DNA of 64,000 nucleotides from a virus. Positions 34,501-50,079 of the stretch are shown here, in pieces (the stretch's first letter is position 1; each line of letters starts with the position of its first letter). The position numbers and the translations under genes are program-made. The DNA lies in IMG/VR virus record IMGVR_UViG_3300031688_000003, positions 55,272 through 119,271 of that record; one strand, written 5' to 3'. The notes beneath the pieces were generated by a model. The model ran no database searches and had not been told where the DNA came from. It saw nothing but the letters and a program-made list of their open reading frames with translations.

Positions 34501-34896
34501 CAAGATCTTTATAATCAAGCTACTAATTCTGGAGCTTCTGTTAGTAATACTAACAAGTCTGTAAAGATAGATGGTACAAACATAAACAATGAACCTACAA
34601 TTATTGAACCTGAGTTTAATTACACTGTGGATAGTATGCCTAAAGAGATTTCTGATGCAGCTATAGCAAGTACTCAGTTACTAATGTCTCAGCTAAGTGT
34701 AGAACCAAGTAAGGAGTCTAGTAAGTCAGATGTAGAAATAGCAACTGTAAGAGATTGGTGGGCAGATATTAAAACAGATAAGTATGGAGCACAAAAATAT
34801 ACAAAGAGATCTGGTATTGATGGTATATTAAATGAATTTGATACCTTTGACGGCACAGCAGAAAGATTTATAGAAATAATAGAAAATTGTAAATAG
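19513..34896 (+). CDS. Giant virion RNA polymerase-type protein with zincin domain and GNAT insertion
   Basis: This 5127-residue protein carries the catalytic signature of a two-barrel DNA-dependent RNA polymerase: DFDID at residues 4004-4008 inside ISGADFDIDKLFMH, preceded by RIPSQDKHSAMS near 3964, matching the beta-prime pattern of R-P-x-x-x-x-H-S before the metal-binding aspartates. The usual G of DFDGD is I. Upstream, about 3300-3860 (TDAQMVGTVKSFRHLW, KQAEITAALVSSHG), should hold the other barrel. A zincin-like site HEAFH is at 2149-2153 with a candidate third ligand in EEYLADAF near 2215. Residues about 3172-3306 look like an acetyltransferase. The N-terminal 600 residues contain Ala/Gly-rich hydrophobic stretches that might cross a membrane. 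In crAss-like phages such a protein is packaged and transcribes early genes; that role is inferred here. No frame break occurs in over 15 kb. Confidence 0.82.
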   Translation: MAEIDETTQGNTNLPQDQNISNQMVQEESIPESNVPQVSDINFEDIADMIGSPTGNLASLQLRDPVFEGMLRQAAIPINSAPPMTGLHSSSNPLPGKATQHYNPYEDSTPPDMTTIEGKKKMMMQGMHQAMVNPRQQKAPGYRSDLEYGIRETNFDRYYAHNKYDELGFHPFRNNEQIYNANATLWDDHARAWKQTSRTYWTGFTSSYDAIGDWLSGDGYLSPDRDGAEAFVDAMRIGNSSKEGVGGAAIRFGLNSGYTFGIISNIMAEEIVLAGVTALSGTGAAPVAAARTAQNVGRLKTAWNAFGTAFKTGVGQSTRISAGAKLMKDMNKVENARHFFTAVGEGALNFVTPGTMQAIRTLNTSKGVVRGAQSIKNANAVFGGFYRDMRQINLAIAESKLESGIVYNQMIDGLYHDYVAQYGDTPPSEKIDEIRQKATAASSATMGFNAPLIYLSNKIVLGTLFQGMGGGLSRLASRYEGKGAARLFRNSTVKPAAAKATTDVAKKTMYDGGSTFIKRLKNLGVKGSAGSVGAFALRYTGANFAEGIQELSQEVIAKTAEDYYTGLFLDPASIQNMLLDASLKDAINAQISPQGFEVFMSGFLMGGLVQPVQQGLMVGLPSLYQMGKGHYGTKQDKAKYQQYKKTKEEFLSKSLENLNLIAEDPLKYFDPTKLNAVEQKQINERLLQSSYSSDMLSFMDDKDQSMFSQLDYLYKTGKSSEFKYLLEDYTKLSDAELLEGFPEYTKEIKSGKLRGKLEKAISKIDEFKKGWDMVKMSYPNPYDPSEFMEGSAEWNITALQSLAYDHSTKLLMYSQDTFKRALERSNSIFERLSGESVISKFNTNDISALLDLKSLKTEMELLKSEIELGATTSEQKELIETKTKRLELLQNYFDIITNPENFTKRSEDNIAISAKTDMEATEETGDDTMEIGGQRYKAARKVTSEVGTFDRRKINKLTPAFNAYINFLAEQKGEFIHGNDMTDVLKDIVDYKFLKGRSQTYFRAIENLNNPEAMGDTAQRIAERLKIIFDRNKEDVEVAVKKYVNDLEKNELINQFASQLIYPDADQVILFFQEGIIPTIFQSPSGQITAQDNTGKWEAIQNLIKAYQNRPGTETTVQPGDAVTEDEINNEDEFDRLANQAEQKVTEISESTNAVLVTKWKSYVQSRVGTSGKVLSWNDWQNTKEAKNIKAIRAELDVVYLSNLTLDQQQQKSFDKWLIENQRTPEVYRILDSKGGSISDYIITDSDTAQTDKLDAGDVLTESPTGINILKKLVSSQSGDDEFFYEVVDNNMNNLHQQYVNVDPSIMDTYATMGEALKAQDAIIKLLPSNSTFPFQGRDFHYKQILQDNNKELFTVITTPSLFNKGGKLYLRPLEFANDPKKSFEVTDVGNYSPLDATNFKASSKQDNLLKLRQSEPIRLYARRADNETAEDAEVRLTDRLKEIPQEQVRAFTLKVSRNAKWESFLNEEPTNRGKLGTEEFNNPRLRIGSEELTVAVMHGREILGYLQGPTGSIILDAYDNVINPLSLTEDQAEEYFQIYKTSSTQLRTAAEQLQIIKNNYASSILLNKKLRDLLGSDQEADIPIAKIKGLDLRISPGEMSFAAKGKGVTFSELHSSTVDGKNIWVVDNRSDGNGGIITNITDDEVYEKTDALVSAATDQSGYNPLNTKSRYVAAVRLNNGTFTFVELKAGELTSDEKSQLTLDILNEQDKTLAENIDKENDEVKDATVNFAFNEKLKNDFYVFGKTGEFIDIELTARGDVQVIYRNTKKAGKDGKALRVTYTVNENELKGVKESANPFKEFLTVINNKIKFKDSSIEVKSGLKLSSDNFRSSIPKEATIQDLASVVTNFNKGLRENIRIEAVIADSAQINNILNNVELPSFVKNSVKEQIENTDQVLLEAESEAPELTPEYMRRLFAEGYVNIDTNIIKAIARKLATNIELSAAERTIYANNKNTQVRDDINLLKLTYRSGVIEEGGSTDIDIEGNPVVVEKSPSRKIADQIKDLEEESGKLEDKIWEDTYYSIASDEQIKADPSVIKEGNIAANDAIENSEELKSIEAKIAELKKNLAPKVINERLGQEHIEQIDEFITWSQQNLPDFIQIQDIRDLSARLKENGKTAGMFTLELNTLGNNIEGNIYVGAQTPFKYHEAFHGVFRMLLSEEEIRKYISLAKTEKLAALRKEGKKLSQALNELRTSHSIYNKLSKTELEHRLYEEYLADAFDAFKMKPKGTKTSSEIKSLFTRIIEWIKAVFNRFSKNELTTLFENIDSAKYSISSVQSNRFTTATETGITSAAPKVIAIDSFENTYTDPFTGQEIVSLSNIYMPANDQRQLIATVSALYRSYVERGDLLTMSKRDVLNTAIADYTKLLNPRRTYYTSESNGISFRSIRKKLKTYYKALKTNRDVIAENVTNYLAIFDAKYQIEQDAFEEHIHNEDNNIRKVDQYGKDASQIGGAMSLSTELRTFIATTVLSEQDLFGNTETLEGIPIVTTVDFNFAYSGLLKALSDKTTDLELLRALALFSSSNKNTAAVANNIFNEIGIIDPISLLDAEQLPEISNPNFLQKVIKGFNMFRVDYMFAHKDDDTGIVFLYAANKKDDAHSQIDHWSQHFDEVYPTLLTDDGKKKAVSLLNLFYSKLQNPKERSRNALDIESKDIAKKIYEQIGIQLNAETIKYSILSTKVVRKNWEEAIVSLGLSAGADPIVSEDIAELRNSISRGENIFLDNQTNIPENEAEEQSTPEVVEQSTGISSRLKKMANTNANFDETVGATVFRDPKGNLIYAHQMPTFHLVKIAEMSEANWASTKLEENKFFNRNYLLNNDKFLAHAKSGQLKVSRFIGSKEGRLTENEQGTLIENRGLNTNQKDGVSFGESTGAEFIADVLNSYVYNYNRNSQSVPLNPYDKNGKELFYITAPVDLKVLSDASTSDFVDLPIEKMIEQDESGDIKLTDHTLDALINNILQYEYDRVADELNAETTAKDVIEGFNTDIIKKGVQTGQRGKRFVRSRGFITSRKSKIKVLGGIKTPLMSEKTRADIAIGEQRIILRGGKALGKIGLDSGQESPISIDYKVEGETKFESFILKNKGLVSVDNINLDEYLTNLGEAKSTKPFAGKKKQNTAKLGDVTYYFQRGDDARFFNGTIQQYAYEFIPLGEANIEIGVEEVKTVSTQQTTEVKATAGTNYKIKKYDTGLESLLLSRGGKEIGHIDIDSSEKNIADEEVNAMYNANPERKTIVNIEINKAEQGKGLGKYLYKLAAKEYGTLRSDISISPEAFRVYESLVKEGYAKKITNIKQIEGNVGTFLIQDTAGQQTTESDVAYFESDTFVEETLINAAKEGLTFDQAVDRIGKDKLKGIIEERILTDFFDFRRLLTNTKATAKLSSELTEGLGMIVRPEKGKKGKAYHKVTNEGRKAMTLYNLKENDLDYNLAQIFMHGYVNARSFNDLLLGDHALLFENFTAETKRAKMQNASGPSAASAIVAPKLGINHTFMADNSISLFTYHDPKVQKRFSNGTIESTDAQMVGTVKSFRHLWFGVGKLSPAQSDLLDRIERGDVITAEDMWGDVKLGTEGYIKLNAIINSKKFVYGDGNVFAKMSFFMLSKGLTSYKNKFGEWVALPQMEELHNLRVKLEAAEKGTQKVSLAIPTSGSKMMKKNVITAKEMYGSKSILEIQEDYKDVNGSHRSITQGLNPKWMRLQVINPSNKLEGIDPRQMKQLATTEQTDNIEVVIGGVPISIKKIKEAYHKSVSDQVTLRYRNKRNLVFNLGTALDEIGKSVDINKVTVNLRSFLRYAISGLEASKSKTQMLEFFSFDEVGNPKFNLNNPITIDKFQELFLGYFSKGVLAGKQAEITAALVSSHGAKPMRKVLELDENGQPLRTQVIRMDEFKEMKTKPEIADKFIEIDNEPGKWVGLKVGDVILQKLQHNVYDPITKEYYSEFMMAAHHREVYKNLKPGDIIPIEIAEALGIRIPSQDKHSAMSLRLVDFLPVYYGSSAMFSDELIEISGADFDIDKLFMHIKEWYYAKGKFNEYGKSNTDKGRYAEYIRNVLSQVNKRGTAVSDAVTNWSTNDSAFLDEEETADLQDDLARQTASELKVNASLFKEAYSAKIISYVLEINDSITDEQVIKLYNKNEDLYGALQSLGLPVTLKEYKAYFEKNGEPYEAAINNDILDQRIALIGNEGIVKPKDGRQIGIGNEPADLEPLYEIRDYLKEEFPELADFANPEDIDPDNMLGLLETWNSIKTGEGGIGAAVRPNVVLNMLGENGIKVQSNIAAGRELNPQIRFNSTTFSEFATKYSIEGKGNDKAVRTQYLISSLITMMTDNAKERLADVLSINKNSLAVVTTLSSLGVPIKTSMLLLKNPIIKLGYDLAINKVSPMDPGISSILKKRLTFLNNDYEISTVPVTDAILTGAIMNDWVNPTLPLTSGFGTDMTGQTPEGYTDEEASLEYSVIKQFVNARRLTDYTGKLGSLVDLLAGFGRSTQDIDKAANDFKELGVGLSDSEFKKLKDKDGVAIPIDVRPIFEGNDFRATYYNIFKEFTEDLLPAVFITRTAEFVKMKEAVVANMISNNMLVDERRVNIIEKDVLSYLTMTSYKQFLLNSPDGAEKLGSLQNGLIYDDLGGENSVTIDNVITSVRNYFKAEGKENYFIEKFIYLDLASNDTNKAGINRAKANNWTQMSDSKVVDLQASFAEIYSEPALRTHAYDLMHYLLVKDGMQFKNNTFLSAIPGFMFDRVLNAISAGHTLLKSTTATDSSYNLVFGKSSEMLANDFVEGYLKSNQNGWLLPMVKSITTDEAQAAHINKEGNLIVNMFNGVKSFTEQKGTKVIKGKKYKFQREGKSIFVDQKSKQYKALAKNMGQLGGMGFKFENIKKGEKALELVLPLYVRNIYKDDFGTTYVKNFELQQTYREKRFSKSGDIMNMLDGEELVAKGYQAVYVPVELVGSNQVTPVSFALGEVPTYKSLRDKYKSDPMDGLINSLNLDQIEEDIKSFGNMDAAAMQDLYNQATNSGASVSNTNKSVKIDGTNINNEPTIIEPEFNYTVDSMPKEISDAAIASTQLLMSQLSVEPSKESSKSDVEIATVRDWWADIKTDKYGAQKYTKRSGIDGILNEFDTFDGTAERFIEIIENCK
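29014..29444 (+). other. GNAT acetyltransferase-like module inserted in the RNA polymerase protein
   Basis: Residues about 3172-3306 of the giant protein read as a small acetyltransferase: VNIEINKAEQGKGLGKYLYK matches the acetyl-CoA loop Q-x-x-G-x-G, followed by EAFRVYESLVKEGYAKK like the family's C-terminal helix and strand. The segment is bracketed by an exact 11-base direct repeat CAACAAACTAC (29014-29024 and 29434-29444), encoding QQTT on both sides. This suggests a domain inserted into, or duplicated within, a linker. The enzyme assignment is by motif only. Confidence 0.6.
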
Positions 34897-34898
34897 AT

Positions 34899-37800
34899 AT
34901 GGCAACTTGTTATAACAAAAATACTCCACAGTATAAAGCTTTAGAAAAGAAATTTAAAAGCTCATTAAAGATTGACGGTTACATTGATGCATATCAACGT
35001 ACTTCTAAATCAGATCAGATTCCTTCAGTAGCTAATGTTGAGACTATGCTAAAGAGAAGACAAACAATGTTATCTATAAAGAAAAGAGGATATAAGAAAT
35101 CTATATTATCAAATTTGAGCAGAATGAAATTAGTTAATAATCACTATGGTCAATACAAAGTTAATCATAGTAATCCAATTACAAGAACATATAGCCCTAC
35201 TATATTAAACAGAAACTATCAGACTATATTAAAAGTACTACAACATAATAGAATACCTATTGAAGCTGTAACTTTTAAGAACATATCTAACAATATAGTT
35301 TCTACTGAGCCAGGATACTTTGAATCATTTACAGTTGATATAAATGAAAACCTTCTTAAAAATTTAGATGAGTTAAAAGATACTATAGATACTAGTAAGA
35401 CTAATGTAATTAGCATAATCAATCAATTGAAATCTACATTCCCTAATGTACAAGTAGATATTGTTTCAAATAAAGAAGCAGAAGAATACTATAATCTATT
35501 ACCTGCTTCTAAGAGAGCTAAAGTACCTTTCAATTTAATTAACGCATATTACCAAGGTGGTGTAGTTAAGTTAATTGAAAACAAAGTAACTTCAGAGATT
35601 GCAGTAGAAGAAATGTTACATCCTTTTATATCTGCTATAAAGCAGGATAACAATAAGTTATATAAGAGTCTGTTAACTGAAGCAAAGAAGATGTTCCCTT
35701 TACTTAATCAAGAGATTGCTGACTCATATATTGTATCAAGAGGGTTTAGTCAAACAGATAGGGACTTAGAATTAGTAACCCAATCATTAGCATTACACTT
35801 TAAAAAAGAATATCAAGAAGCTCCTACAGAAAATTGGAAATCAAACATAGTAGATTTATTAAAATGGTTTTTAGATTTAGTTGGTAAGGTGTCTGACTAT
35901 ATTGTAGGTGATAAGTTAAGAATAACTGTAGATGTTTTAAAACCTACATCAAACCTAACAGATATTGCTAAGTTGCTAAACACAGATCAACTGCAGATAC
36001 TTTTAAATACAAAGGTTGATGAGCAAGTTAGATACTCATTGGATCCAGAATCTAAAAGAGTTGTAGATTACGTAAAGGGTAAGAGTAATGATGTTCAGAA
36101 AGCTATTATAGACAACTTCTTTAATATTGTTACAAATTTAGACTTTGAAGTAAATCAATTGACTACGGATAACGTTATACTGGAAAGAGATACACATACA
36201 TATGTAAACCTATCTGATTCAAGCATTACATATAAGTCATCAACTACAGCAATCAAAGGTCCACTTACTGATACAGAAGGTGCATATGAATTAAATAGAT
36301 TAATAGGTAATGATTTTGACACTATACTTGAAAGCATTACAATGAATATACCTCTTGAAGAAATGCCTAAGTTAGATGTATTAGCTGAGGATGTAGCCAA
36401 AAGAGCATATGAAGCTTTGCAAAATTATACATTTGGTATGGAAGCAGATGGTAGTGTATTAATACCACAGATAATAGTATCAGATAGAGAGAGTAAAATA
36501 GCAGGAATGATTGATCTATTACGTATTCATCCTGATGGAAGTCTTACAATTATAGATTTAAAGTCAAGTAAAAACTCAAGTGACTCTTTTGGTTATACTG
36601 ATATGGTCTATCCTGTTAGTGAAGGTAGTGTATTTTTTGATCCAAAAGATCCTGGTAAGAAAGTATTTACAACTAGCCAACAACATTCTATACAGACAAA
36701 TCTATATAGAAGAATGCTAGAAAACATGGGGTATACAGTAACCCCTGAGTCACAAACATTTCATGTACTAGTTGGTATAGAAGGTAAAGGTAAGAATCAA
36801 AAGTTCACAGGTGAGTTCAAACTAGATGGTACAAAGTTTCATCCAGCTACACAGAGTAAAACATATGTAGATCAGATAGTTCCTTATAGAGTTAATGAGT
36901 CTTCAGAAAAAGCTTTAGAAGGTGCTCTTGAGAGTGCAGGAATATTTTCACCAGCTGATATTATAAATGATCAACCACAAGAACAAGCTCCTCAAAGTGA
37001 CGCCCCTTCAAATGCTGCATATAGTTCAATGTTTGACGTTGTAAAAGAATTTAAGAAAAATGTTATAACAAGAAAATCTGCAATTGAAAAGTTAAAGAGT
37101 AGTACTTTATTTAATATGTCTCAAACAGAATACTTAGATGAACTACAACAAACTGTTTCTGCTATCAATGTATCAATGTTGAGAGGTACAGCAGATGTAG
37201 TGTTTACTGAGTTACTAAGAGATGGTATAAAAAAGATCAAGGATGTTACTGAATACTTAGGAACTAAAGAGAATTTTAAAAGTCCTGAGTATATCAAACA
37301 TGTACTATATTGGAAAAAGTTTGTTGAAACATACCGTGGATTAGTTGATATATCTAATGCTGATGGTTTAAACAAGACTCAATTACAATATAAAGAATTA
37401 TTACAGACAGGTCTTAATGCACTTGTAGGTGAAAAGCAAAATGATGCAGGAGATAAACTACCAGGTATACTTGATAGTGCTTTAGAAAATTATGTAGTTG
37501 CATGGTCTTTGGATAAAACTAATAGAGATGATATGACAGAGGATGATGTAAGAGCTATGTCTAAACATACTGAGGATATTGGCATGCTAGAACATTTAAC
37601 AGGAGATCTTGACACTTCTGCTGATATGTTATCAGCTCTTATGGCTAAAGAATTTAAGGCTACAAAACAAAAGATGCTTGATAAGGTTGAGGATATTAGT
37701 GATGATATAAGAAATTCTGCAAATAACTTAATGATGGAAACTTTAGGTAATAAAGTTGACTATAAGTTTATGCAAGTTTTTGATGAGGATGGGATATGGA

Positions 37801-40511
37801 CAGGGAGATATGTTAAGAAAATTGGTTATCAGTACTACAGTAAGTTAGATCAATTATCTAAAAATTTAAGTGATACTGACGGAACCCCGTTGAGATATAT
37901 AGAAAAAACAAACCTTGAAGATTATACAGCAAGTGATATAGAGCATAATCAGAAACTTGCTAAAGCAAAAGTAGAGTATTCAAAGTTTATGAATCCTGAA
38001 AAGACTAGTAAGCAAGGTTATTCAGACGGTGAATTTCATAAATTGACAGAGGAGTTTAAAACTGCTAGAAATAAAGTAATGGAGTATAGAAGATCTATAC
38101 AGCAGTGGGTTAGAAAAAATGGTATATCAGATTTAGAAGTAGAGAACTTTAAAGGTAAGTACTATGATACAATAGAGTACTACAAGAAAAGTAAAGATGC
38201 CTATGGTGATTTTACTGGTATGGTTAAGTTAGATACTATGACAGTAATCAAAAAAGACAATGTAGAGAAGAGAGAAATATCTGCATCAGGAGAAGAAATG
38301 AGAGATAGTAAGTATTTAAGTATTATGGATCCTCAGAATTCTTTACAGAGTGCAGAGAAACAATTTTACTTAATGTTTAGAAGAGTATATGAAGATGAGT
38401 TGTTACCTAAACTACCTAAAAATATTGGGTCAATGATGCTTGGTAGAAGTCCAGTTGTTAAGGATAGATTTCAAAAGGAGTTAGAAACTAAACCTGAATT
38501 TATCCAAGGTTTTTGGGCAAAGACTCAAACAGGATTCCAGAATTTCTTTAATACAACTACAAAACAAGAGATAGTTGCATTTGATGAATTTGGTAATTTT
38601 GTTGAAGATACATTGCCTATTTTTTATGTAGGTCAACCTAGAACAGAAGCTGAACTTGTAAAGATACAAGATGAAATAGCTAGCAAAGTAAAACTTAGAA
38701 GTACAGCAAAGACTGCTGAAGAATTACAAGAAATTGATTCTGCTCTAAGTCAACTGAGACTCAATAGAACAAGATTACAAGATCAACCTACTAGAAGTCA
38801 GATGAGTACAGACATGACTGATAATCTTTTAAGATTTGCGGGGATGGCACAAAATTATGAAAGTCTTGGAATAGTTGAAGATACTTTTAAAGCTATAATG
38901 ACTACTATGGCTAAAAGAAAATATGATCCAAAAGAGTATGGGGTATTTTCTAGAATAGGTAAGGGTGTTAATGCTAAATTAGAAAAGGTAGGTATAAGAG
39001 GTACAGGAAGTTCAAGGGGTGATGCCAAAATATTACAGAGAGCACGTAAGTATATGAGTATGACTTTCTATGATAATGAAAAGAGAAGTCTTGAATGGTA
39101 TGATAAACTGGCTGCCAAGATTGTATCTTTTTCATCATTAGGATATGTAGGTTTTAATGTCTTTGGTAATATTAATAACTTTGTGATGGGTAGAGTTAAT
39201 AATGGTATTGAGGCTGCAGGTGCATTATACTTTGATAGAGGTGCTTATGCTTTAGCTACATTAGAGTTTAATAAAAGAATGTCTACTGACATGTTTAATA
39301 AATGGGCTCATAATTATAATGGTGCATTTGGTAAAGGTAAATATAAGAAGTACATTCCTATTAGTAAATTTGAGGGAGCTGTTGATTGGTTTAGAATGTT
39401 AGATGATAAAACAGATATACGTGAAACTGTAAAGACTCCAGGTGTAGAAGGAAGAGCAATGAGAATAGTAGAGTCTGTAGGTTATTCTTTGAATGATGCT
39501 TTTGAATACAATGTACAAACTAAAACTGGTCTGGCCATTCTTTATACTCTTCAGGTAGACAATGGTAAAGCTGAAGGAGAGGGTGGTAGAGAGACTATGA
39601 GTTTGTATGATGCTATGCAATGGAATAATACCTCAGGTACTATGGACCTTAAAGATGGCTTTACTCATATCACACTTAAGAATGGTAAGAGAAAAGTTTT
39701 CAATGATGATGTTAGATATGAGATTAGAAATTATATACGTGAGGTAAATAAGCAAATCCATGGTAATTATGCTAGAGAAGATAGAATGGTTATACAAGCA
39801 CATACTATTGGACAACTTGCTGCACAATTTCATAAGTGGATTGCCCCAGCTATTAAGGCTAGGTTTAGAGCAGAGTACTTTGATGAAAACTTAGGATTTG
39901 TAGAAGGAAGATATAGGTCCATGTTGAATTTTTTAGCATACTCAACACGGAACCTAACTCAAATAGGAAAACTTCAAAGTAACTATAAAGCCTTTAATGG
40001 TAAAGATGGTTTAGTTAAATTAAAAAATGTACATAGAACACTTGGGGAACTAGCAATATTCATGACAGTAGTGTCATTAAATTCATTACTGAAAGATTGG
40101 GATGAAGATGATGATGACTCTAAAAAATCAGCTACTAGAAAAAGATTAGAGAATGCACTAATCTACCAAATGAATAGACTACAAAAAGAATTAGTACTTT
40201 ATTTACCTGTCTTTGGTGGAGCAGAACAAATGCAAATGCTTGATGGTCCAATATCTTCAACAAGATTAGTTGGAGAATTTAGTGGAGCATTTATGGAGAC
40301 ACTAGGTTGGATACCACATTTACCAGCTTATATGTCTAAAGAAGGACAAGAATTTGAAAACTGGAAAAAAGACTCTGGTCTATACTATACAAGAGGTACT
40401 AGAAAAGGAAAAGTAAAGCTTTCTAAAGAATGGGGTGATGTAATACCAGGTTGGTATACTATTAATAGATGGTTAGCATTTGATAATATTAAAAACTTTT
40501 ATGTCAAGTAG
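34899..40511 (+). CDS. Giant virion protein with PD-(D/E)XK nuclease-like domain and degenerate zincin
   Basis: This 1870-residue protein starts two bases after the RNA polymerase gene. Residues 230-330 resemble the zincin segment of that protein, but HEAFH is replaced by EEMLH (237-241), losing the first His. Residues about 450-640 look like a RecB/Cas4-type nuclease: GMIDLL (D539), then IIDLKSS (D553, K555), then a helix with QQHSIQTNLYRRM matching the family's Q-x-x-x-Y motif. Long charged helices fill the middle. A hydrophobic helix (ELAIFMTVVSLNSLL) near residue 1727 precedes an acidic patch DEDDDD. The pairing with the polymerase gene suggests they enter the host together; the nuclease could act on host DNA, phage DNA ends or in packaging, which the sequence does not settle. 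It is the last gene of the left plus-strand operon. Confidence 0.68.
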   Translation: MATCYNKNTPQYKALEKKFKSSLKIDGYIDAYQRTSKSDQIPSVANVETMLKRRQTMLSIKKRGYKKSILSNLSRMKLVNNHYGQYKVNHSNPITRTYSPTILNRNYQTILKVLQHNRIPIEAVTFKNISNNIVSTEPGYFESFTVDINENLLKNLDELKDTIDTSKTNVISIINQLKSTFPNVQVDIVSNKEAEEYYNLLPASKRAKVPFNLINAYYQGGVVKLIENKVTSEIAVEEMLHPFISAIKQDNNKLYKSLLTEAKKMFPLLNQEIADSYIVSRGFSQTDRDLELVTQSLALHFKKEYQEAPTENWKSNIVDLLKWFLDLVGKVSDYIVGDKLRITVDVLKPTSNLTDIAKLLNTDQLQILLNTKVDEQVRYSLDPESKRVVDYVKGKSNDVQKAIIDNFFNIVTNLDFEVNQLTTDNVILERDTHTYVNLSDSSITYKSSTTAIKGPLTDTEGAYELNRLIGNDFDTILESITMNIPLEEMPKLDVLAEDVAKRAYEALQNYTFGMEADGSVLIPQIIVSDRESKIAGMIDLLRIHPDGSLTIIDLKSSKNSSDSFGYTDMVYPVSEGSVFFDPKDPGKKVFTTSQQHSIQTNLYRRMLENMGYTVTPESQTFHVLVGIEGKGKNQKFTGEFKLDGTKFHPATQSKTYVDQIVPYRVNESSEKALEGALESAGIFSPADIINDQPQEQAPQSDAPSNAAYSSMFDVVKEFKKNVITRKSAIEKLKSSTLFNMSQTEYLDELQQTVSAINVSMLRGTADVVFTELLRDGIKKIKDVTEYLGTKENFKSPEYIKHVLYWKKFVETYRGLVDISNADGLNKTQLQYKELLQTGLNALVGEKQNDAGDKLPGILDSALENYVVAWSLDKTNRDDMTEDDVRAMSKHTEDIGMLEHLTGDLDTSADMLSALMAKEFKATKQKMLDKVEDISDDIRNSANNLMMETLGNKVDYKFMQVFDEDGIWTGRYVKKIGYQYYSKLDQLSKNLSDTDGTPLRYIEKTNLEDYTASDIEHNQKLAKAKVEYSKFMNPEKTSKQGYSDGEFHKLTEEFKTARNKVMEYRRSIQQWVRKNGISDLEVENFKGKYYDTIEYYKKSKDAYGDFTGMVKLDTMTVIKKDNVEKREISASGEEMRDSKYLSIMDPQNSLQSAEKQFYLMFRRVYEDELLPKLPKNIGSMMLGRSPVVKDRFQKELETKPEFIQGFWAKTQTGFQNFFNTTTKQEIVAFDEFGNFVEDTLPIFYVGQPRTEAELVKIQDEIASKVKLRSTAKTAEELQEIDSALSQLRLNRTRLQDQPTRSQMSTDMTDNLLRFAGMAQNYESLGIVEDTFKAIMTTMAKRKYDPKEYGVFSRIGKGVNAKLEKVGIRGTGSSRGDAKILQRARKYMSMTFYDNEKRSLEWYDKLAAKIVSFSSLGYVGFNVFGNINNFVMGRVNNGIEAAGALYFDRGAYALATLEFNKRMSTDMFNKWAHNYNGAFGKGKYKKYIPISKFEGAVDWFRMLDDKTDIRETVKTPGVEGRAMRIVESVGYSLNDAFEYNVQTKTGLAILYTLQVDNGKAEGEGGRETMSLYDAMQWNNTSGTMDLKDGFTHITLKNGKRKVFNDDVRYEIRNYIREVNKQIHGNYAREDRMVIQAHTIGQLAAQFHKWIAPAIKARFRAEYFDENLGFVEGRYRSMLNFLAYSTRNLTQIGKLQSNYKAFNGKDGLVKLKNVHRTLGELAIFMTVVSLNSLLKDWDEDDDDSKKSATRKRLENALIYQMNRLQKELVLYLPVFGGAEQMQMLDGPISSTRLVGEFSGAFMETLGWIPHLPAYMSKEGQEFENWKKDSGLYYTRGTRKGKVKLSKEWGDVIPGWYTINRWLAFDNIKNFYVK

Positions 40512-40522
40512 AACAGAAGGTG

Positions 40523-42382
40523 CTAGCTAATTTCACACGCACCTCCTGCACAAGCTAACTCACCTTTAAGATCAGTATTATCTTCTATTTCAACTACATT
40601 ATCTAGATTAATATCCATTAGAGATTTTATTAATTCATTATATTTCTCTTCTGTAATGTCTTCAAATGGAGCTTGAATATATGTTCCACCATCATAGGGT
40701 AAGACAGCTAAACCATTATAGTGTTCTCTGTTATCCCACATCCATTTTCCAGCAGCATCCCATTCATGATCTCTTAAAGAAATAGTAGCAGATACATTAT
40801 GAGTATTTGATCCTGCTCTATGTCCAGTGTTAACCCATTCAGTAGCAACTTTTTTAACTCTTTCAAGTAATTGAAAAGGTGACTCAGTTCTAAGTATAGA
40901 ACCTTTAGGTGCCATTTGTGGAATACTAATACATGCAGTATCATGAGGTCTAAAGTAATCATCTTCTAATAACTCTGGATGATTGATGCTTAAGTAATTA
41001 TAGATTGATTCATTTTTACCTACACGCATTCTTCTGATGTAGAAATCATTATGCCAAGCATGAATACCTGAACTTGTACCTAATGTTAATGATGTAGTAC
41101 CTGCAGGTTTAACGCATGTTGTCCTTGCTGCTTTGTTTATCCCTATCAGTTTTGCTACTCTTGAGTTTTCTCTCTTTACTATACTTGCAGCTTCCTTCAT
41201 ATCCAGCTGGAGCACAGCGGCACTCCCTATTCCTGTCATTGACACACCTATAAGTGCGTCCTTCTCTGTTGTGCTTTGCCATATCTCTCTTAAATAATGA
41301 AAATTAGTATAACCTGCTTGAAGTGTACCAATGAATGCAGCCATTTTAACTCTTTCATTTAGATCCTCTTGTGATTCTATGTTTGAAACATTTACTTCAC
41401 ATAGATTACAGAACTGATATGGTCTTAATGCAATTTCACAACACGGATTTGTTCCCCAATCCTTATCATTGTTTAAATATATACCTGGTTCACCCGCTCC
41501 AGATAACTCAACACGTTTCCATAAGTTCATGAAGAATTCTTTAGTTATTTTATGTCTCATTAATACTGCAGAGTTGTTTGATCTACCTCTTTGTGGATTT
41601 TTTTCCCACCAGTCTCCAGTTTTACATGAAATCATTTCTTCATCATGAGCACTAAACAAACTAATCAAAGCTGCTCTTCTAATACCACCAGCTAATACAG
41701 CATCAGCAATATGGCAAACCATATCATGAACTTCTAAACTAGACAACTGACTACCATCATCTTTAGAATCTAACAGACCTTCAAGCTTTAATAAACATTC
41801 TTTAAGTGGTTGAGGTCCAGGAGCCTTACCACCTGATGTTACTAATCTTGCACCCTTTGCTCTAATGTCAGAATAGTCAAATACAACTTTAGATGACCTA
41901 CCATTAAGATAAGACTTAATTAATACTTTAACAGCATCAGCCCATCCTTCAATTGAGTCTCCAATTAAATATCTTTTAAATCTTTTATCATATGGTTTGT
42001 TAATAGGAGGTAATTTATTAACATGATGTTGTTGAACAGAATAACCAACACCTGTACCACCTAATAGTAAAAACATAGTTTCACTAAATGAGTGAATATT
42101 ATCTATAGGAAGATAAGCACAGTTATAAACTCTATTAGGGCTTATTTCAATAGGTTTACCACCAAATTGCATTGACCTCATTGATGGTAAAACTTTTTTA
42201 TCATATACAAATTTATATGCTTTAGTAATTTCTTCAACTATACCTGGATATTTCTTTATATGCATAGCTTTGTTTCTGTCAACTAACTCACTCCATGTCT
42301 CTCTTCTTTGTACTTCTGGTAAATATTTTGCGTATTTCATATGGACAGTAATGTCACTCAGAATTTTGTTACTTAAATTCAT
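40523..42382 (-). CDS. Adenosylcobalamin-dependent (class II) ribonucleoside-triphosphate reductase
   Basis: This 619-residue enzyme reduces ribonucleotides to deoxyribonucleotides using B12, with no separate radical subunit. Visible motifs: NCAYLP with the N-terminal redox Cys88; NPCCEI at 312-317, where C314 is the expected thiyl-radical Cys between N312 and E316; FCNLCEV with C325 and C328 for the partner Cys; PAGTTSLTLGTSSG, a phosphate-binding loop; and a C-terminal CAGGAC (611-616) fitting the C-x4-C tail that re-reduces the active site. These match the monomeric Lactobacillus-type enzyme (about 740 residues), but this one is shorter, so the allosteric region may be reduced. It is the only minus-strand gene between two plus-strand blocks and converges on the left operon with an 11-base gap. 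No B12 riboswitch is evident upstream. Confidence 0.88.
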   Translation of the reverse strand: MNLSNKILSDITVHMKYAKYLPEVQRRETWSELVDRNKAMHIKKYPGIVEEITKAYKFVYDKKVLPSMRSMQFGGKPIEISPNRVYNCAYLPIDNIHSFSETMFLLLGGTGVGYSVQQHHVNKLPPINKPYDKRFKRYLIGDSIEGWADAVKVLIKSYLNGRSSKVVFDYSDIRAKGARLVTSGGKAPGPQPLKECLLKLEGLLDSKDDGSQLSSLEVHDMVCHIADAVLAGGIRRAALISLFSAHDEEMISCKTGDWWEKNPQRGRSNNSAVLMRHKITKEFFMNLWKRVELSGAGEPGIYLNNDKDWGTNPCCEIALRPYQFCNLCEVNVSNIESQEDLNERVKMAAFIGTLQAGYTNFHYLREIWQSTTEKDALIGVSMTGIGSAAVLQLDMKEAASIVKRENSRVAKLIGINKAARTTCVKPAGTTSLTLGTSSGIHAWHNDFYIRRMRVGKNESIYNYLSINHPELLEDDYFRPHDTACISIPQMAPKGSILRTESPFQLLERVKKVATEWVNTGHRAGSNTHNVSATISLRDHEWDAAGKWMWDNREHYNGLAVLPYDGGTYIQAPFEDITEEKYNELIKSLMDINLDNVVEIEDNTDLKGELACAGGACEIS

Positions 42383-42907: not shown

Positions 42908-43672
42908 ATGGCAACTAATATTAATACACAAAAGGTTTTATCAAGAAGAATATCTGGAATTGATGGAATAGGTGGTGCAATAGCTTTCACAGATAAGTAT
43001 TCAATAAGTTTTGATGGAAGTAATGAATATCTTGCTTTGTCTTCAGTTCCATTATTAGGTACACTTGGTACAGGAGATTTTAGCATATCTTTATGGGTTA
43101 ATGTTACTAATCTTACTGGACAAGGAAATCAAAGACTCGTTACATTTGGAGCAGGAGGATCATATCAAACTGCTATGGCTGTTAATAATACTGGTAATTT
43201 AACTTTTTCTGGACCATGGAGTGATCAATTTGCTTGGGGAGGAACAGCTGGAAATTGGAGACATGTGATATATAGAGTAAATAGACAATCAATTTCTAAT
43301 AATGTAGGTTTTGCTGTAGATGGAATAATATATGACAATAAAAACGTTAATACTACAGGAATCACTTTTGATACTACTGGTAATGGATACATTGGTAGAA
43401 ACGCAGGATCATTTAATTTTGCAGGAAATATAGATGAGATTGCTGTTTGGACTAAATACCTTACTAACGCAGAGTGTGTAGAAATATATAATTCTGGAGT
43501 TCCTACTGATTTACAGGCATCAAGTGTTTCAGCTAATTTACAAAGCTGGTGGAGAATGGGTGATCCTGGAGGGCCTGGTTCTTATCCTACTATTGTAGAT
43601 CAGGAATCAGGAAATAATGCTACAATGACAAATATGCTAGGTGCAAATATAACTACTAATGTACCAACATAA
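42908..43672 (+). CDS. LamG/concanavalin-like domain protein, probable receptor-binding or tail surface protein
   Basis: Most of this 254-residue protein fits a laminin-G-type (concanavalin fold) domain: SISFDGSNEYLAL, then DFSISLWVNV, then GNWRHVIYRVN, then GYIGRNAGSFNFAGNIDEI and a closing WWRMGD. These strands appear in the usual order across residues about 30-215. The family binds sugars or proteins, and in phages it is common in tail and fibre proteins that contact the host surface. No signal peptide is present, fitting a virion protein. Its stop overlaps the next start (TAATG), so the two are translationally coupled. Confidence 0.75.
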   Translation: MATNINTQKVLSRRISGIDGIGGAIAFTDKYSISFDGSNEYLALSSVPLLGTLGTGDFSISLWVNVTNLTGQGNQRLVTFGAGGSYQTAMAVNNTGNLTFSGPWSDQFAWGGTAGNWRHVIYRVNRQSISNNVGFAVDGIIYDNKNVNTTGITFDTTGNGYIGRNAGSFNFAGNIDEIAVWTKYLTNAECVEIYNSGVPTDLQASSVSANLQSWWRMGDPGGPGSYPTIVDQESGNNATMTNMLGANITTNVPT

Positions 43673-44721
43673 TGAGAAAATTAATCCTAATATTATTTTT
43701 ATTAATATCTTATACTACTGTTGCTCAAGATAAATGGAAGGAGTTTTGTAAGAAAACATTTAAGTTTTCTACATTTTACGCTGCAGTCAATGGAGGGACA
43801 TCAATTTCAGATGTAGATAGATACTCAATCACTAACGGTTTAGAAACAGAAATAGTTAAAACACCATATGATTACGCTATAACGTTAGGGATAAGAAAAA
43901 TAGCTAGATTTGGATATGAGAATAAAGCCAATACATTTTACGATGGAACAGAAAACTCTTGGTCTGATGCTGCTACAATAGGTAAGAGGGATGGTTTAGA
44001 ATTTCTTTTTGAGATAGATTTACGAAGATTACAAGGACAAGACTACTTAGACCAACATCATTTTTTAAGGTATGTTGCTCCTGACTGGATTACGAAGATT
44101 GAATATTTACAGAATGGATTTGCAGATATACAATATTTTGAAGCATCAGAAAGATATAGATATAAACTCAATAATAAGCTTTCTTTTAACATAGGGAGTG
44201 CTCAAAGGATAGCAGAACCTTATGGATATGATCCTTTAGAGGAATGGTTGCTATCAAATGGCAACTTACATTATACGTATTTAGCTATAGAAGAGGGTTA
44301 TAATTATAATTTATATGCAAATGAATATAGTGACCCTAGTGGTAATATAGTTGCTACTAGCAGTGAGGTATGGAAAGAATTAATAATACCTGTAGTTCTT
44401 TCAGATTATTCTGAGAAGAAACGGAATGAATTAAAAAGACAATGGACATACTCTGTAGTCCTGGGTGCAGATTACTATTATTATAAGAAGGATAAATGGT
44501 TACATGCTTGGGGTAATTTAATGCCTTATCATTATGATGAAGGTAACGAATATTCCTATCACAATTATGTAGATGGTCAATGGTTAGATTACTCTGGAGG
44601 ACTTATATTAGGTTATAAAATTACTAAGAGTTTAGGATTCTTTGTAGAGGGTAAATATAACAAGTATTGGAACAAAGAATGGTATGATTTTAAATTTGGA
44701 CTTAACTACATAATACTATAA
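43672..44721 (+). CDS. Signal-peptide protein with outer-membrane beta-barrel character
   Basis: This 349-residue protein has a clear Sec signal peptide (MRKLILILFLLISYTTVAQ, cleavage after about residue 19). The rest is rich in Tyr, Trp and alternating polar/non-polar residues. The last strands (WTYSVVLGADYYYYKK, YSGGLILGYKIT, GFFVEGKYNKYW, WYDFKFGLNYIIL) look like transmembrane beta-strands, and the chain ends on a hydrophobic strand as outer-membrane proteins do. An exported barrel is unusual for a phage. It could alter the host surface, for example to block superinfection, or be a morphogenesis protein. No family is recognised; the barrel call is by pattern. Confidence 0.55.
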   Translation: MRKLILILFLLISYTTVAQDKWKEFCKKTFKFSTFYAAVNGGTSISDVDRYSITNGLETEIVKTPYDYAITLGIRKIARFGYENKANTFYDGTENSWSDAATIGKRDGLEFLFEIDLRRLQGQDYLDQHHFLRYVAPDWITKIEYLQNGFADIQYFEASERYRYKLNNKLSFNIGSAQRIAEPYGYDPLEEWLLSNGNLHYTYLAIEEGYNYNLYANEYSDPSGNIVATSSEVWKELIIPVVLSDYSEKKRNELKRQWTYSVVLGADYYYYKKDKWLHAWGNLMPYHYDEGNEYSYHNYVDGQWLDYSGGLILGYKITKSLGFFVEGKYNKYWNKEWYDFKFGLNYIIL

Positions 44722-45140: not shown

Positions 45141-45281
45141 ATGGGTAAAAAAGTATGTTGGAAATATGGTAAAGGAAAATATTGTGGTACTTTAATTCCT
45201 AGTAAGGAAACAAAGACACATAGATATGCTAGAACTGAGAATGGTAAAATAAAATCTTTACCTAAAAAGAAAAAAAAATGA
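45141..45281 (+). CDS. Basic microprotein with two Cys (46 residues)
   Basis: The ATG lies six bases after the previous stop, and its TGA overlaps the next ATG (ATGA). The product begins MGKKVCWKYGKGKYCGTLIP and ends in a run of Lys (PKKKKK). Length, composition and overlap resemble other phage microproteins. Function unknown. Confidence 0.5.
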   Translation: MGKKVCWKYGKGKYCGTLIPSKETKTHRYARTENGKIKSLPKKKKK

Positions 45282-45562
45282 CAAAAGAATTAAGTGAAGA
45301 TACAGCAATCAAATTAAGTATAAAAACCTTAGGGGGAATTGCTACACTAATTGCTATACTAGTTGGGATGTGGTTTAATTTACACGGTGAGATTGCAGAG
45401 GCTAAAACTCTTCCAGCTCCAGTACCACCAGACGTAAGTAGAATGGAATTTGATATGAAAGATCAAAACATCAGGTTGTCTATTGAAAATACTGAAAAAG
45501 CTGTTGATGACTTAAAAAACAGATTAATTAGAATGGAAGATAAATTAGATAAGCTACGATGA
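45278..45562 (+). CDS. Single-membrane-span coiled-coil protein (spanin- or holin-accessory-like)
   Basis: This 94-residue protein has one hydrophobic segment (LGGIATLIAILVGMWFNL, about residues 14-31) followed by a Pro-rich stretch (PAPVPP) and a heptad-like charged helix (NTEKAVDDLKNRLIRMEDKL). One membrane anchor plus a periplasmic coiled coil is the layout of inner-membrane spanins and XhlA-type lysis accessories. The start overlaps the previous stop and its own stop overlaps the next gene by four bases. The lysis role is inferred from topology and the holin at 49684. Confidence 0.5.
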   Translation: MTKELSEDTAIKLSIKTLGGIATLIAILVGMWFNLHGEIAEAKTLPAPVPPDVSRMEFDMKDQNIRLSIENTEKAVDDLKNRLIRMEDKLDKLR

Positions 45563-45909
45563 AAGTTATTTGGAGAATATTTACTGGGTATTTATTAATA
45601 TTATTATTTTTAATATTTAGTTCAAATGTCTCAGGTCAAATTGTAGTAACTCATTTTAATGCTGCCTGGAATGATCCTAATAAAGTAAGTTACATTGGAG
45701 ATCTAACAGACTGTGATATAGTTTATGTTGATATAGCAGTAGCACCAAAACTACAAACTAAACATAAAATAGTAGTAGTACCAACTGTTATTATCTATAA
45801 AGATGGAGAAGAACAAAAAAGATACCAAGCTGACATATCATTTAGTATGAAAGCTACAAGAAAAGAAATGCAAGATTATATTGACGAATTATTAATGGAA
45901 GACTTCTAA
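45559..45909 (+). CDS. Exported thioredoxin-fold protein lacking the redox cysteines
   Basis: This 116-residue protein has a signal peptide or anchor (residues 1-26), then a thioredoxin pattern: IVVTHFNAAW, the short helix, IVYVDIA, and HKIVVVPTVIIYKDGEE with the conserved cis-proline (P75). At the active-site position normally reading WCGPC it has WNDPN (W37-N41), so both catalytic Cys are missing. It therefore cannot act as a dithiol oxidoreductase and probably serves as a binding or folding partner in the periplasm, perhaps for the Cys-rich exported protein encoded next (TAATG overlap). Fold assignment is good; the role is inferred. Confidence 0.65.
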   Translation: MKVIWRIFTGYLLILLFLIFSSNVSGQIVVTHFNAAWNDPNKVSYIGDLTDCDIVYVDIAVAPKLQTKHKIVVVPTVIIYKDGEEQKRYQADISFSMKATRKEMQDYIDELLMEDF

Positions 45910-48359
45910 TGAAAAACTTACTAATATTATTATTATTACCATTAAGTATATTTGCTCAAGACTCATGGGTAAATTTTAAAGTTCAGTATGATTTTTATGC
46001 ACCACAAGAAGCTAACTTCTTTATGGTAGAAGATACAGTATCAGGGGATACAGTAATGTTTCATCAACCTACAGTAGGTTATGAATATTTAGACACAGTA
46101 ATTAATATAAACTCAGGTAACTATGTTGTTACATTAACAGATAATTTTGGAGATGGTTGGGTTTCAAATCAACCAGCTTGGTTTAAAATGAGTAATGATT
46201 GTCAGGGAGCAATATTAGATTATACACCTTTAACACAGGCTTTCTTTACTCTAGATACTTTAGTAAATATATGGCCATGTGCTCCACCTCAACCACTAGG
46301 ACCTCTAGTACCTACTAACATTATAATTAACTTAGATCAATTTACACCAGAAACCTCTTGGGATATACAAGATTCAAACGGTATTGTATATGCATCTGGA
46401 TCAGGATATGGCTCACTTGCAGCTTACTCTGTAGTAGATACAATAGTAGAGATACCTAAAGGATCATTAAAATTTAACATATATGATTTATATGGTGATG
46501 GTTTAGAAGGTTCTGCATGGCAAGGTGCTGATGGTTCTTATTTTGTAAAACAATGTAATGATACACTAGTGTATGGTACAGATCCAGCTTTTGGTTTTGA
46601 TACTATACACTGTTTTGTTTCTGACTCATGTCCACCTATACTAGGTTGTACAGATGATGACTATTTAGAATATGATTACTATGCTGATATAGATGATGGG
46701 AGTTGTCTTACATTAAAAGTATATGGATGTACTGATATTTCTATGTATAATTTTGATGCTTTAGCTAACACAATGGATATGTTAGATGAATGTGAGTTTA
46801 CTCTTATCCTACATGACCTTATAGGAAATGGATGGGTGGGATCTTATTTACAATTATTTACTCCAGATACATCATATATTTTTACACACACTTCTGGATT
46901 TACTGATATTTATCAAGTAACTATAACATCTCCTGACCCTATATCATTTGTATTTAGTATAGATCCTTTAGCACAGGCTACAACAATAGAATGTGGATTT
47001 ACTTTAATTAATCCAGATGGAGATACTATGATTAATATCCAACCTCCTTTTATTACTCCTTCTTTTGTTTATCCTTTGATTACTGCTTGTGGTAATGAAT
47101 GTGTAGAAATGGTTTATGGATGCACATATACTAATGCAATTAACTATGATTCATTAGCTAACACAGATGATGTTAGTTGTTACTATAACCCAGGGTGTAC
47201 TAACCCTGTCTACTTAGAGTATAATGCTAATTACGATCAAGAAGATGGTTCTTGCAGTACTTTAGTTGTAATAGGCTGTATGGATTCTACAGCATTTAAT
47301 TATGTAGATACAGCAAACACAGAACTACCTAACTCATGTATAGCAGTTGTTGAAGGATGTATGCAAGCTTTAGCTTTTAATTATAATGTGAATGCTAACA
47401 CATCAGATACTTGTATTGCTATTGTTTATGGGTGTATGAGCCAATTAGCATTAAATTATGACTCAGTAGCAAATGTAGATGACAATAGTTGTATAGGGAT
47501 TGTTTATGGGTGTATTGATACATTAGCATTCAATTTCTCTCCTATGGCTAATGTTGATGACGGAGGGTGTATTCCTGTTATATATGGTTGTATTAATCCA
47601 ATTATGTTTAACTTTGACAATAGTGCTAACACTAATGATGGAACTTGTATTCCTTTTATTTATGGTTGTACTGACTCAACAATGTTTAATTTTAATCCCT
47701 TAGCTAATGCAGATAATAATACTTGCAATCCTTTTGTTTATGGTTGCACTGACCCAAGTGCCCTTAACTTTAATCCGTCTGCAAATACAGAAGATTTTAA
47801 TTGTGTTACTTATATGTATGGTTGTATGGATGCAACTGCTTTTAACTATGATACGTTGGCTAATACTGATAATGGTTCATGTGTGGCTATTGTTGAAGGG
47901 TGTGTGGATCAAACAGCGTTTAATTATAATTCAAGTGTTAATGTGGTTGATAGTTTGTCTTGTTTATATAGTGCTAATTGTATTACTGGTGACAGTATTC
48001 CGTATTGGTTGAATGATCCTTGCTATGCTTGGGTAATAGATGTAGATGACTATTGTTGTGATAATGAATGGGATGATATTTGTCAATTAACATATGATTA
48101 CTGTAATAGTTCATGGGTTGGTAATCAACCTGAATCTAGAACAATAAGTGATAATATTAATCTATATCCTAATCCTACTACAGGAGTAGTTAATTTCTCT
48201 GTAAATGTAGACATAAGTGTCTTCAATACGTTAGGAGAAGAGTTAATACATGAAATAAATGTTAAATCAATAGATTTATCATCTTTTAGCAAAGGTATTT
48301 ACCATTTTGCTATTAAATATCAAAATAAATTTGTAAATTATAATATAGTGAAGAACTAA
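45909..48359 (+). CDS. Cys-repeat surface protein with type IX secretion sorting domain
   Basis: This 816-residue protein begins with a signal peptide (MKNLLILLLLPLSIFAQ). Three beta-rich segments with DNFGDGW, DLYGDGL and DLIGNGW motifs follow in residues about 20-340. Repeats of about 35 residues with the pattern GC-x-D-x-x-AFNY-x-x-x-ANTDDGSC run through about 245-687 (with a different segment between the second and third), then a Cys-rich knot (DPCYAW, YCCDNEWDDICQ). The C-terminal 65 residues (from 752, LYPNPTTGVVNFS, to GIYHFAIKYQNK) match the Por/type IX sorting domain that Bacteroidota use to export proteins to the outer surface. A phage carrying such a tail suggests the protein is shipped by the host's own secretion system and displayed on infected cells, or was captured from a host adhesin. 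Confidence 0.85.
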   Translation: MKNLLILLLLPLSIFAQDSWVNFKVQYDFYAPQEANFFMVEDTVSGDTVMFHQPTVGYEYLDTVININSGNYVVTLTDNFGDGWVSNQPAWFKMSNDCQGAILDYTPLTQAFFTLDTLVNIWPCAPPQPLGPLVPTNIIINLDQFTPETSWDIQDSNGIVYASGSGYGSLAAYSVVDTIVEIPKGSLKFNIYDLYGDGLEGSAWQGADGSYFVKQCNDTLVYGTDPAFGFDTIHCFVSDSCPPILGCTDDDYLEYDYYADIDDGSCLTLKVYGCTDISMYNFDALANTMDMLDECEFTLILHDLIGNGWVGSYLQLFTPDTSYIFTHTSGFTDIYQVTITSPDPISFVFSIDPLAQATTIECGFTLINPDGDTMINIQPPFITPSFVYPLITACGNECVEMVYGCTYTNAINYDSLANTDDVSCYYNPGCTNPVYLEYNANYDQEDGSCSTLVVIGCMDSTAFNYVDTANTELPNSCIAVVEGCMQALAFNYNVNANTSDTCIAIVYGCMSQLALNYDSVANVDDNSCIGIVYGCIDTLAFNFSPMANVDDGGCIPVIYGCINPIMFNFDNSANTNDGTCIPFIYGCTDSTMFNFNPLANADNNTCNPFVYGCTDPSALNFNPSANTEDFNCVTYMYGCMDATAFNYDTLANTDNGSCVAIVEGCVDQTAFNYNSSVNVVDSLSCLYSANCITGDSIPYWLNDPCYAWVIDVDDYCCDNEWDDICQLTYDYCNSSWVGNQPESRTISDNINLYPNPTTGVVNFSVNVDISVFNTLGEELIHEINVKSIDLSSFSKGIYHFAIKYQNKFVNYNIVKN
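46641..47970 (+). repeat. GCTD-AFNY-ANTDDGSC protein repeats (about 13 copies)
   Basis: About 13 degenerate units of roughly 30-36 codons, each with GC near the start, a central FNY or FNF, an AN-x-D/E element and a closing Cys. From about 47100 they are strictly tandem; between the second and third units lies a separate DLIGNGW segment. Nucleotide identity between units is modest, so this is an old protein-level expansion. Confidence 0.8.
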
Positions 48360-49493: not shown

Positions 49494-49684
49494 TGGCTAA
49501 AAAATTTATGGGTATTAATCCTGATCATAAAGGATATTGTACTCCAATGACTAAAGCAACTTGTACACCAAGACGTAAAGCTTTAGCTAAAAGGTTAAAA
49601 CCAGGAGGAGATTTATATAAAGGAAGTATGGGTGGATCAATGATAGAAGGATTAAAAATGAGAAAAAAATTTAATAAAATATAA
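49493..49684 (+). CDS. Small basic conserved phage-type protein
   Basis: This 63-residue protein has GYCTPMTKATCTPRRKALAK, in which two CTP motifs flank a short linker before a basic helix, then a Gly/Met-rich end. Small proteins with this CTP-x-x-K-x-x-CTPRRKALA pattern occur among phage structural and lysis genes, but no function is known to me. It overlaps its neighbours on both sides by TAATG. Confidence 0.5.
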   Translation: MAKKFMGINPDHKGYCTPMTKATCTPRRKALAKRLKPGGDLYKGSMGGSMIEGLKMRKKFNKI

Positions 49685-50079
49685 TGGCAAATATATTAGG
49701 AAAAATATTTTCAGCAGGTGCAGGTGAACTTGTTAAAAGTGTAGGAGGAGTTATAGATAACCTTCATACATCTAAAGATGAAAAGCTAGCAGCTGAATTA
49801 AAAGTAAAAGAGCTTATAGCTAAGTATGAGACTGATATGGAGAAAGAAATATCTAGCAGATGGTCAGCTGATATGGCTTCTGACTCTTGGTTAAGTAAAA
49901 ATGTCAGACCGTTAGTATTAATATTCTTAGTAGTAGCTACAGTGCTATTAATATTTATTGATGCTGGAGTAATAAATTTTGTAGTAGAAGCTAAATGGAC
50001 TGACCTACTGCAGTTAGTATTAATAACAGTGATAGGTGCCTACTTTGGTGGCCGTTCACTAGAAAAAACCAAAAAATAA
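49684..50079 (+). CDS. Phage holin, GTA/3-TM holin family
   Basis: This 131-residue protein has an amphipathic N-terminus, a charged helix (residues 28-60) and the family signature SWLSKNVRPLVLIFLVVATV starting near 68, giving a first membrane helix at about 75-95 and a second at about 107-123 (LLQLVLITVIGAYFGGRS). The pattern of Trp-Leu-x-x-x-x-R-P before the first helix is typical of the gene-transfer-agent type holins that make the inner-membrane hole for lysis. It is translationally coupled to both neighbours. Confidence 0.8.
   Translation: MANILGKIFSAGAGELVKSVGGVIDNLHTSKDEKLAAELKVKELIAKYETDMEKEISSRWSADMASDSWLSKNVRPLVLIFLVVATVLLIFIDAGVINFVVEAKWTDLLQLVLITVIGAYFGGRSLEKTKK

What the first reader, a model, noticed from the sequence alone, without database searches (positions are those of the whole stretch)
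45909..48359. Phage protein with a type IX secretion sorting tail and a GCTD-type repeat array
Signal peptide, about 13 Cys-containing repeats and a Por-type sorting domain (LYPNPTTG onward) would route the protein to the host outer surface. I know of few phage genes using the host's type IX system. It may coat infected cells, block other phages or promote adhesion; it also pins the host to a Bacteroidota lineage with that system.
Basis: partly seen in the sequence, partly recalled or inferred. Interest (0 to 1): 0.75.

Follow-up and report, generated by a model that had tools for sequence, protein, structure and literature searches.

The report
Phage surface protein hijacking host export
Many ocean phages of uncultured Flavobacteriales carry a four-gene set whose largest protein bears the host's own outer-surface shipping label, and related phages have swapped that label again and again between the known type and a short, so far unnamed one that the hosts also use.

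Summary
Confirmed. ORF 45909-48359 (816 aa) has a Q-rule signal peptide, 13 GCTD-type Cys repeats, and a C-terminus passing both curated type IX secretion (T9SS) type A models; its predicted fold matches solved T9SS cargo domains. The record is a crAss-like phage, not a chimera.

The gene belongs to a conserved four-gene cassette: outer-membrane beta-barrel, single-TM coiled-coil protein, thioredoxin-like protein without CxxC, and the T9SS cargo. The barrel has relatives on at least 583 viral contigs; the cassette also sits in a phage contig with myovirus-type genes.

In this phage gene the type A tail alternates with a different ~40-residue tail: at least 11 changes on a tree, and one pair 92% identical in DNA up to the tail boundary. 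The short tail is an uncatalogued C-terminal tag, 2-46 copies per genome, in all 52 sampled genomes of one uncultured Flavobacteriales family. By profile comparison it is probably a shortened relative of type A.

Routing to the infected cell's surface by the host T9SS is well supported but untested; the purpose (probably blocking re-adsorption) is inference. Phage T9SS cargo was reported once before (Cryophage, 2020).

The parts
45909..48359 (+). T9SS cargo gene of the phage (816 aa), the finding
45909..45956 (+). Sec signal peptide, residues 1-16, cleavage before Q17
   Evidence: Q17 invariant in 20 of 20 relatives; Q-rule PMC5837995
45960..46271 (+). N-terminal beta-sandwich domain 1 (residues 18-121); in relatives replaced by another version or absent
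   Evidence: model strands and pLDDT; alignment
46305..46622 (+). beta-sandwich domain 2 (residues 133-238), well conserved among relatives
46644..47963 (+). 13 GCTD-type two-Cys repeats (residues 246-685); two before and eleven after beta-sandwich domain 3 (residues 294-391, 46788-47081)
47973..48104 (+). Cys-rich domain ending YCC..WD..C..Y..C (residues 689-732), the last part shared by both tail forms
48162..48356 (+). T9SS type A sorting domain (residues 752-816)
43672..44721 (+). OMP349: exported protein modelled as an outer-membrane beta-barrel; cassette gene
45278..45562 (+). TM94: one transmembrane helix plus coiled coil (by inspection); cassette gene
45559..45909 (+). TRX116: exported thioredoxin-like protein without CxxC; its stop overlaps the start of the cargo gene
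49684..50079 (+). holin, near the cassette on the same strand (context, not part of the cassette)
   Evidence: phrog_3427 E 5.7e-31

Best explanation
The gene makes a phage-encoded cargo of the host's type IX secretion system. After Sec export, the C-terminal domain is recognised by the host T9SS and the Cys-rich adhesin-like protein is displayed on the outer surface of the infected cell. It works with three partners of one cassette: an outer-membrane barrel, an inner-membrane coiled-coil protein and a thioredoxin-fold protein without redox cysteines, which together remodel the envelope. In related phages the type A tail is exchanged for a short tail that the hosts also use, so the two tails are probably interchangeable export labels. 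The most likely benefit is to make the surface of the infected, and then lysed, cell unfit for further phage adsorption. Shown by sequence: signal peptide, sorting domain, cassette, tail exchange, host use of both tails. Inferred: secretion itself, late timing, the short tail being a T9SS signal, and the benefit. My confidence is about 0.85 for T9SS routing and 0.4 for the adsorption-blocking benefit; the figure below is for the whole.
For: Sorting domain over two curated cut-offs and fold match to solved T9SS cargo CTDs. Q-rule signal peptides on cargo, TRX116 and OMP349, the only convincing ones that a pattern scan found in the record. Conserved cassette across loci with different neighbours and on a contig with myovirus-type genes. 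At least 11 tail changes on the tree and the L271/L314 pair, 92% identical in DNA up to the tail boundary. Tail B is a multi-copy host tag in 52 of 52 genomes of one family, 44 of which have SprA; type A tails were found in all 14 sampled genomes, 11 of them in this family's list. Tail B is profile-related to type A, 0 of 200 column shuffles as high. 22 of 49 tail-B proteins in G001 have a type A paralogue. T9SS-secreted gliding adhesins may serve as phage receptors (PMC13288928).
Against: No expression or secretion data. Function is not indicated by any domain. Tail B matches no curated T9SS model and its similarity to type A is moderate (hhalign probability 62%). Surface exclusion proteins are often made early, whereas this gene lies with late-type genes. 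The host is inferred, not observed; G331:C32 could be mis-binned.
Confidence: 0.45

Rival explanations
1. The cassette serves lysis: TM94 (membrane anchor plus coiled coil) and the outer-membrane barrel act like a spanin pair, and the surface protein weakens or bridges the outer membrane at the end of infection.
For: TM94 looks like an inner-membrane spanin in layout; the cassette lies near the holin in this window and directly beside it in several loci such as L020, L269 and L277.
Against: In many other loci no holin stands next to the cassette. An 816-aa Cys-rich surface protein with an exchangeable sorting tail is not needed for a spanin. OMP349 models as a barrel, whereas classical outer spanins are small lipoproteins (own knowledge).
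Confidence: 0.2
2. The displayed protein is an adhesin that makes infected cells stick to particles, algae or each other, which helps progeny meet new hosts.
For: Beta-sandwich domains and long Cys repeats as in surface proteins; host proteins carry similar GCTD repeats; the N-terminal domain is replaced between relatives, as a binding domain might be.
Against: No carbohydrate-binding or adhesin family was recognised. A benefit shortly before lysis is less direct than a change in adsorption.
Confidence: 0.2
3. The protein is a virion component (fibre or decoration) and the T9SS-like tail is a leftover from a host gene.
For: GCTD repeats occur in a cyanophage gene annotated as virion structural protein and in a 2,198-aa ORF of this phage.
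Against: Conserved Q-rule signal peptides on it and on two neighbours. A tail, A or B, is kept in essentially all relatives that are complete at that end, through at least 11 exchanges, which argues for selection on the tail.
Confidence: 0.08

Closest known systems
T9SS type A cargo proteins (PF18962 / TIGR04183)
   Same: Sec signal peptide plus C-terminal type A domain over curated cut-offs; fold match to the NucA and FspA CTDs.
   Different: Encoded by a phage, inside a four-gene cassette; in relatives the domain is exchanged for a short tag.
Cryophage T9SS cargo genes (PMC7468147)
   Same: Phage genes with type A sorting domains; the authors propose secretion of cargo by the host system and superinfection exclusion among possible roles.
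   Different: Those are an endoglucanase, a glycoside hydrolase family 39 gene and a PA14-domain gene; no barrel / thioredoxin-like / TM cassette and no short tail is mentioned in the passages I read.
T9SS type B cargo with PorP/SprF-like shuttle genes (TIGR04131; PMC12618676)
   Same: A surface cargo gene linked to a gene for an outer-membrane barrel.
   Different: The phage tails are type A or tail B, not type B; OMP349 matched no PorP/SprF family and its Foldseek hits are mixed outer-membrane barrels.
T9SS type C sorting signal (NF033708, ChiA)
   Same: A further C-terminal signal class for the same system.
   Different: Tail B does not match it (one cargo of 20 only at E 0.58).

Membership tests
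T9SS type A cargo | C-terminal domain over curated cut-offs (PF18962, TIGR04183) | tested here: met
   32 and 31.4 bits against 27 and 23
T9SS type A cargo | N-terminal Sec signal peptide | tested here: met
   By inspection, pattern scan and conservation, Q17 invariant; no dedicated signal-peptide predictor was available
T9SS type A cargo | Ig-like beta-sandwich CTD | tested here: met
   Model pLDDT 73-89 in the tail; 8glk_D TM 0.76, 8glj_D TM 0.75
T9SS type A cargo | Secretion depends on SprA and PorV | not testable with these tools
   Needs expression; candidate hosts have SprA
T9SS type A cargo (for short tail B) | Curated type A model match | tested here: not met
   1 of 25 tails at E 0.1, none better; related by profile only
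Type B cargo with dedicated shuttle | Type B CTD (TIGR04131) and a PorP/SprF-family barrel | tested here: not met
   No TIGR04131 match on the cargo; no family match on OMP349
Thioredoxin (for TRX116) | CxxC active site | tested here: not met
   No CxxC at the active-site position in 28 of 28; Pfam thioredoxin match just under the cut-off
crAss-like phages (for the record) | Portal and DNA polymerase related to those of crAss-like phages | tested here: met
   Portal hits csAssE-Sib, cr111_1, Cellulophaga phi17:2 and phi4:1, but the best hit is Leptolyngbya phage Lbo-JY46; polymerase top hit Cellulophaga phi14:2; no tree was built, so this is kinship and not formal placement

The most novel reading that the evidence does not exclude
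The short tail is a new class of T9SS sorting signal used by a whole family of marine Flavobacteriales, and the phage cassette is a self-contained surface-display kit: a cargo that can take either host label, its own outer-membrane barrel as dedicated shuttle or anchor, and a thioredoxin-fold chaperone without redox cysteines for the Cys-rich cargo.
Probability: 0.3. Interest if true: 0.88.

Novelty: new variant of a known kind. Interest (0 to 1): 0.74.

Why it matters
In the papers I could search, phage-encoded T9SS cargo was described from one phage. Here is a cassette whose barrel gene alone has relatives on at least 583 viral contigs, found with crAss-like and myovirus-type backbones, so the question what phages of Bacteroidota do to the host surface becomes directly testable. 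The repeated exchange of the type A tail with a short host tag is a natural experiment that points to that tag as an export signal. If confirmed, it adds a sorting class and gives a destination to 2-46 exported proteins per genome in a marine bacterial family. The tag also helps to predict hosts of uncultured phages.

Tried and rejected
Chimera or host fragment: rejected. Named phages: only the GCTD repeats match, 15% of the protein, in cyanophage S-CAM3 and one single-cell virus. Cultured phages with the barrel or the thioredoxin-like gene: none. Host proof through the phage polymerase in 396 genomes of the order: none, and an empty result without a positive control shows nothing. Profile comparison with the small phage alignments was uninformative; the larger host alignments gave the signal. 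Foldseek of the barrel did not single out PorV or PorP. Foldseek of the whole cargo lists low-TM matches to ferlins first, which I ignored. Type B and type C signals for the short tail: not supported.

Full report
OBSERVATION. The ORF at 45909..48359 (+) is 816 aa. The C-terminal 65 residues pass the curated cut-offs of PF18962 (32 over 27 bits) and TIGR04183 (31.4 over 23 bits). It is the only such domain in the 119,271-base IMG/VR record of which the window is the last 64 kb. The signal peptide ends before Q17, which is invariant in 20 relatives, as the Bacteroidetes Q-rule says (PMC5837995). There are 13 GC...C repeats at residues 246-685. The AlphaFold2 model is poor overall (pLDDT 50), mainly because the repeats are not predicted, but most of the tail has block means of 73-89. 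Foldseek matches it to the NucA and FspA cargo domains solved in T9SS complexes, TM 0.76 and 0.75 over 75 residues, probability 1.00.

THE RECORD IS A PHAGE. It has terminase, portal and major head protein, DNA polymerase, ribonucleotide reductase and holin. Portal relatives include crAss-like and Cellulophaga phages; the best polymerase hit is Cellulophaga phage phi14:2. A second IMG/VR record carries the same region at 99-100% protein identity (L002).

A FOUR-GENE CASSETTE. In most of the 36 viral loci found with the protein the same four genes stand together: OMP349 (43672), TM94 (45278), TRX116 (45559) and the cargo (45909). The order is partly permuted and the neighbours differ. Of the 80 best loci, 59 carry the cargo with an identified tail, 24 type A and 35 tail B. 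Cassette cargoes without a detected tail nearly all run off the contig; L278 is the exception and stops before the tail. The other tail-less hits are large or partial ORFs with lower scores. On G331:C32, a 43-kb contig binned with a genome of the host family, the four genes are present with a type A tail, while nothing else among its predicted proteins matches the window's phage. Its other genes include a baseplate hub, a DnaB-like helicase and an RNR small subunit, which I read as myovirus-type, T4-like. So the cassette crosses phage backbones. A pattern scan of the record gave seven signal-peptide candidates; by eye only OMP349, TRX116 and the cargo are real ones.

PARTNERS. OMP349 models with 14 long strands (mean pLDDT 70.5) and its Foldseek matches are outer-membrane barrels of several families; no solved homologue was found by sequence. 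TRX116 is thioredoxin-like just under the Pfam cut-off in the window protein and in seven relatives; the active-site Cys pair is absent in 28 of 28 and the cis-Pro is kept. TM94 is a transmembrane helix plus coiled coil by inspection.

TWO TAILS. After the Cys-rich domain, relatives carry either the type A domain or a 38-40 residue tail, KxLxxITDLLGRPxKExKNxLLFYIYDDGTVEKKxIK. On a tree of 82 cores without tails the state changes at least 11 times, and starred branches alone force 11. It is a quick tree with SH-aLRT support only, and recombination inside the cores could inflate the number. Independently of any tree, L271 (type A) and L314 (tail B) are 92-93% identical in DNA through the cassette up to the tail boundary, where the match stops. 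On the tree the window's protein (L002) stands beside L003, which has tail B.

TAIL B IS A HOST TAG. The genome-collection scan confirmed 314 hits; the 78 loci listed come from Bacteroidota records, mostly uncultured marine Flavobacteriales. The tag sits at the very C-terminus of 126 ORFs, 102 of 115 complete ones with a crude signal-peptide pattern; upstream regions fall into 25 clusters, and none has YPNP. All 52 genomes of the family of G001 carry 2-46 copies, against 3 of 296 drawn across the phylum, one of them G001 itself. 44 of the 52 have the T9SS translocon protein SprA; the other eight may be incomplete, which I did not check. All 14 genomes sampled for type A tails have 33-136 of them. 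No Pfam or NCBIfam model covers tail B. In G001, 49 tail-B and 53 type A ORFs do not overlap, and 22 of the 49 have a paralogue with a type A tail; in several pairs the alignment runs to the tail boundary. Profile comparison of tail B with type A gives score 25.6, probability 62%; 0 of 200 column shuffles reach it (maximum 19.2) and the reversed profile scores 12.6. My reading is that tail B is a shortened type A signal that keeps the LGR strand and the last strand with its Lys residues. This fits the report that the last 22 residues of one type A domain suffice for secretion and that the final Lys residues matter (PMC10202324). It remains an inference.

FUNCTION. Routing to the surface follows from established T9SS biology if the host has the system. 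The benefit is not shown. The position on the strand of the structural genes and near the holin suggests late expression. T9SS-secreted gliding adhesins may be phage receptors (PMC13288928). A late surface protein with its own outer-membrane barrel would most simply alter adsorption, sparing progeny from debris or excluding rivals. Lysis and adhesion remain open.

PRIOR ART. [quoted passage not shown] I found no report of this cassette, of the short tail or of the exchange in eight searches of the held library; most subscription papers are not in it.

LIMITS. No expression data. G331:C32 may be mis-binned. The host family is named only through record titles; it includes MAG AC_MB403 and a 'Cryomorphaceae bacterium BACL11' MAG. 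Counts of viral contigs are lower bounds and include near-copies.

Noticed in passing
L069, L070, L095 (CAMBDW01, genome G007): A MAG titled Chryseobacterium gleum lies in the uncultured tail-B family; its species label looks wrong.
   Followed up: partly
L040:12648-19241 (record 32648-39241): A 2,198-aa ORF among the phage's structural genes carries at least three GCTD repeats and a leucine-rich-repeat-like stretch.
   Followed up: no
window 3-40511: Six very large ORFs in a row (1,152 to 5,127 aa); the five that were scanned gave no PHROG match and the 5,127-aa one is over the tool's length limit.
   Followed up: no
window 40523-42382: Adenosylcobalamin-type ribonucleotide reductase on the minus strand in the midst of plus-strand genes.
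   Followed up: no
window 42908-43672: A 254-aa protein with a concanavalin-like (LamG-type) domain whose C-terminal half also matches a 'tail terminator' PHROG.
   Followed up: no
L261:3373-5412: A trypsin-like protein with tail B on a viral contig: another phage cargo, or cellular DNA in the collection.
   Followed up: no
G331:C32 (L229, L230): Phage contig with myovirus-type genes and a Nol-like carbamoyltransferase, binned with a genome of the tail-B family.
   Followed up: partly
G001 (L120-L216): A nearly complete host genome with 49 tail-B and 53 type A ORFs found by profile, useful as reference for the unnamed tag.
   Followed up: yes
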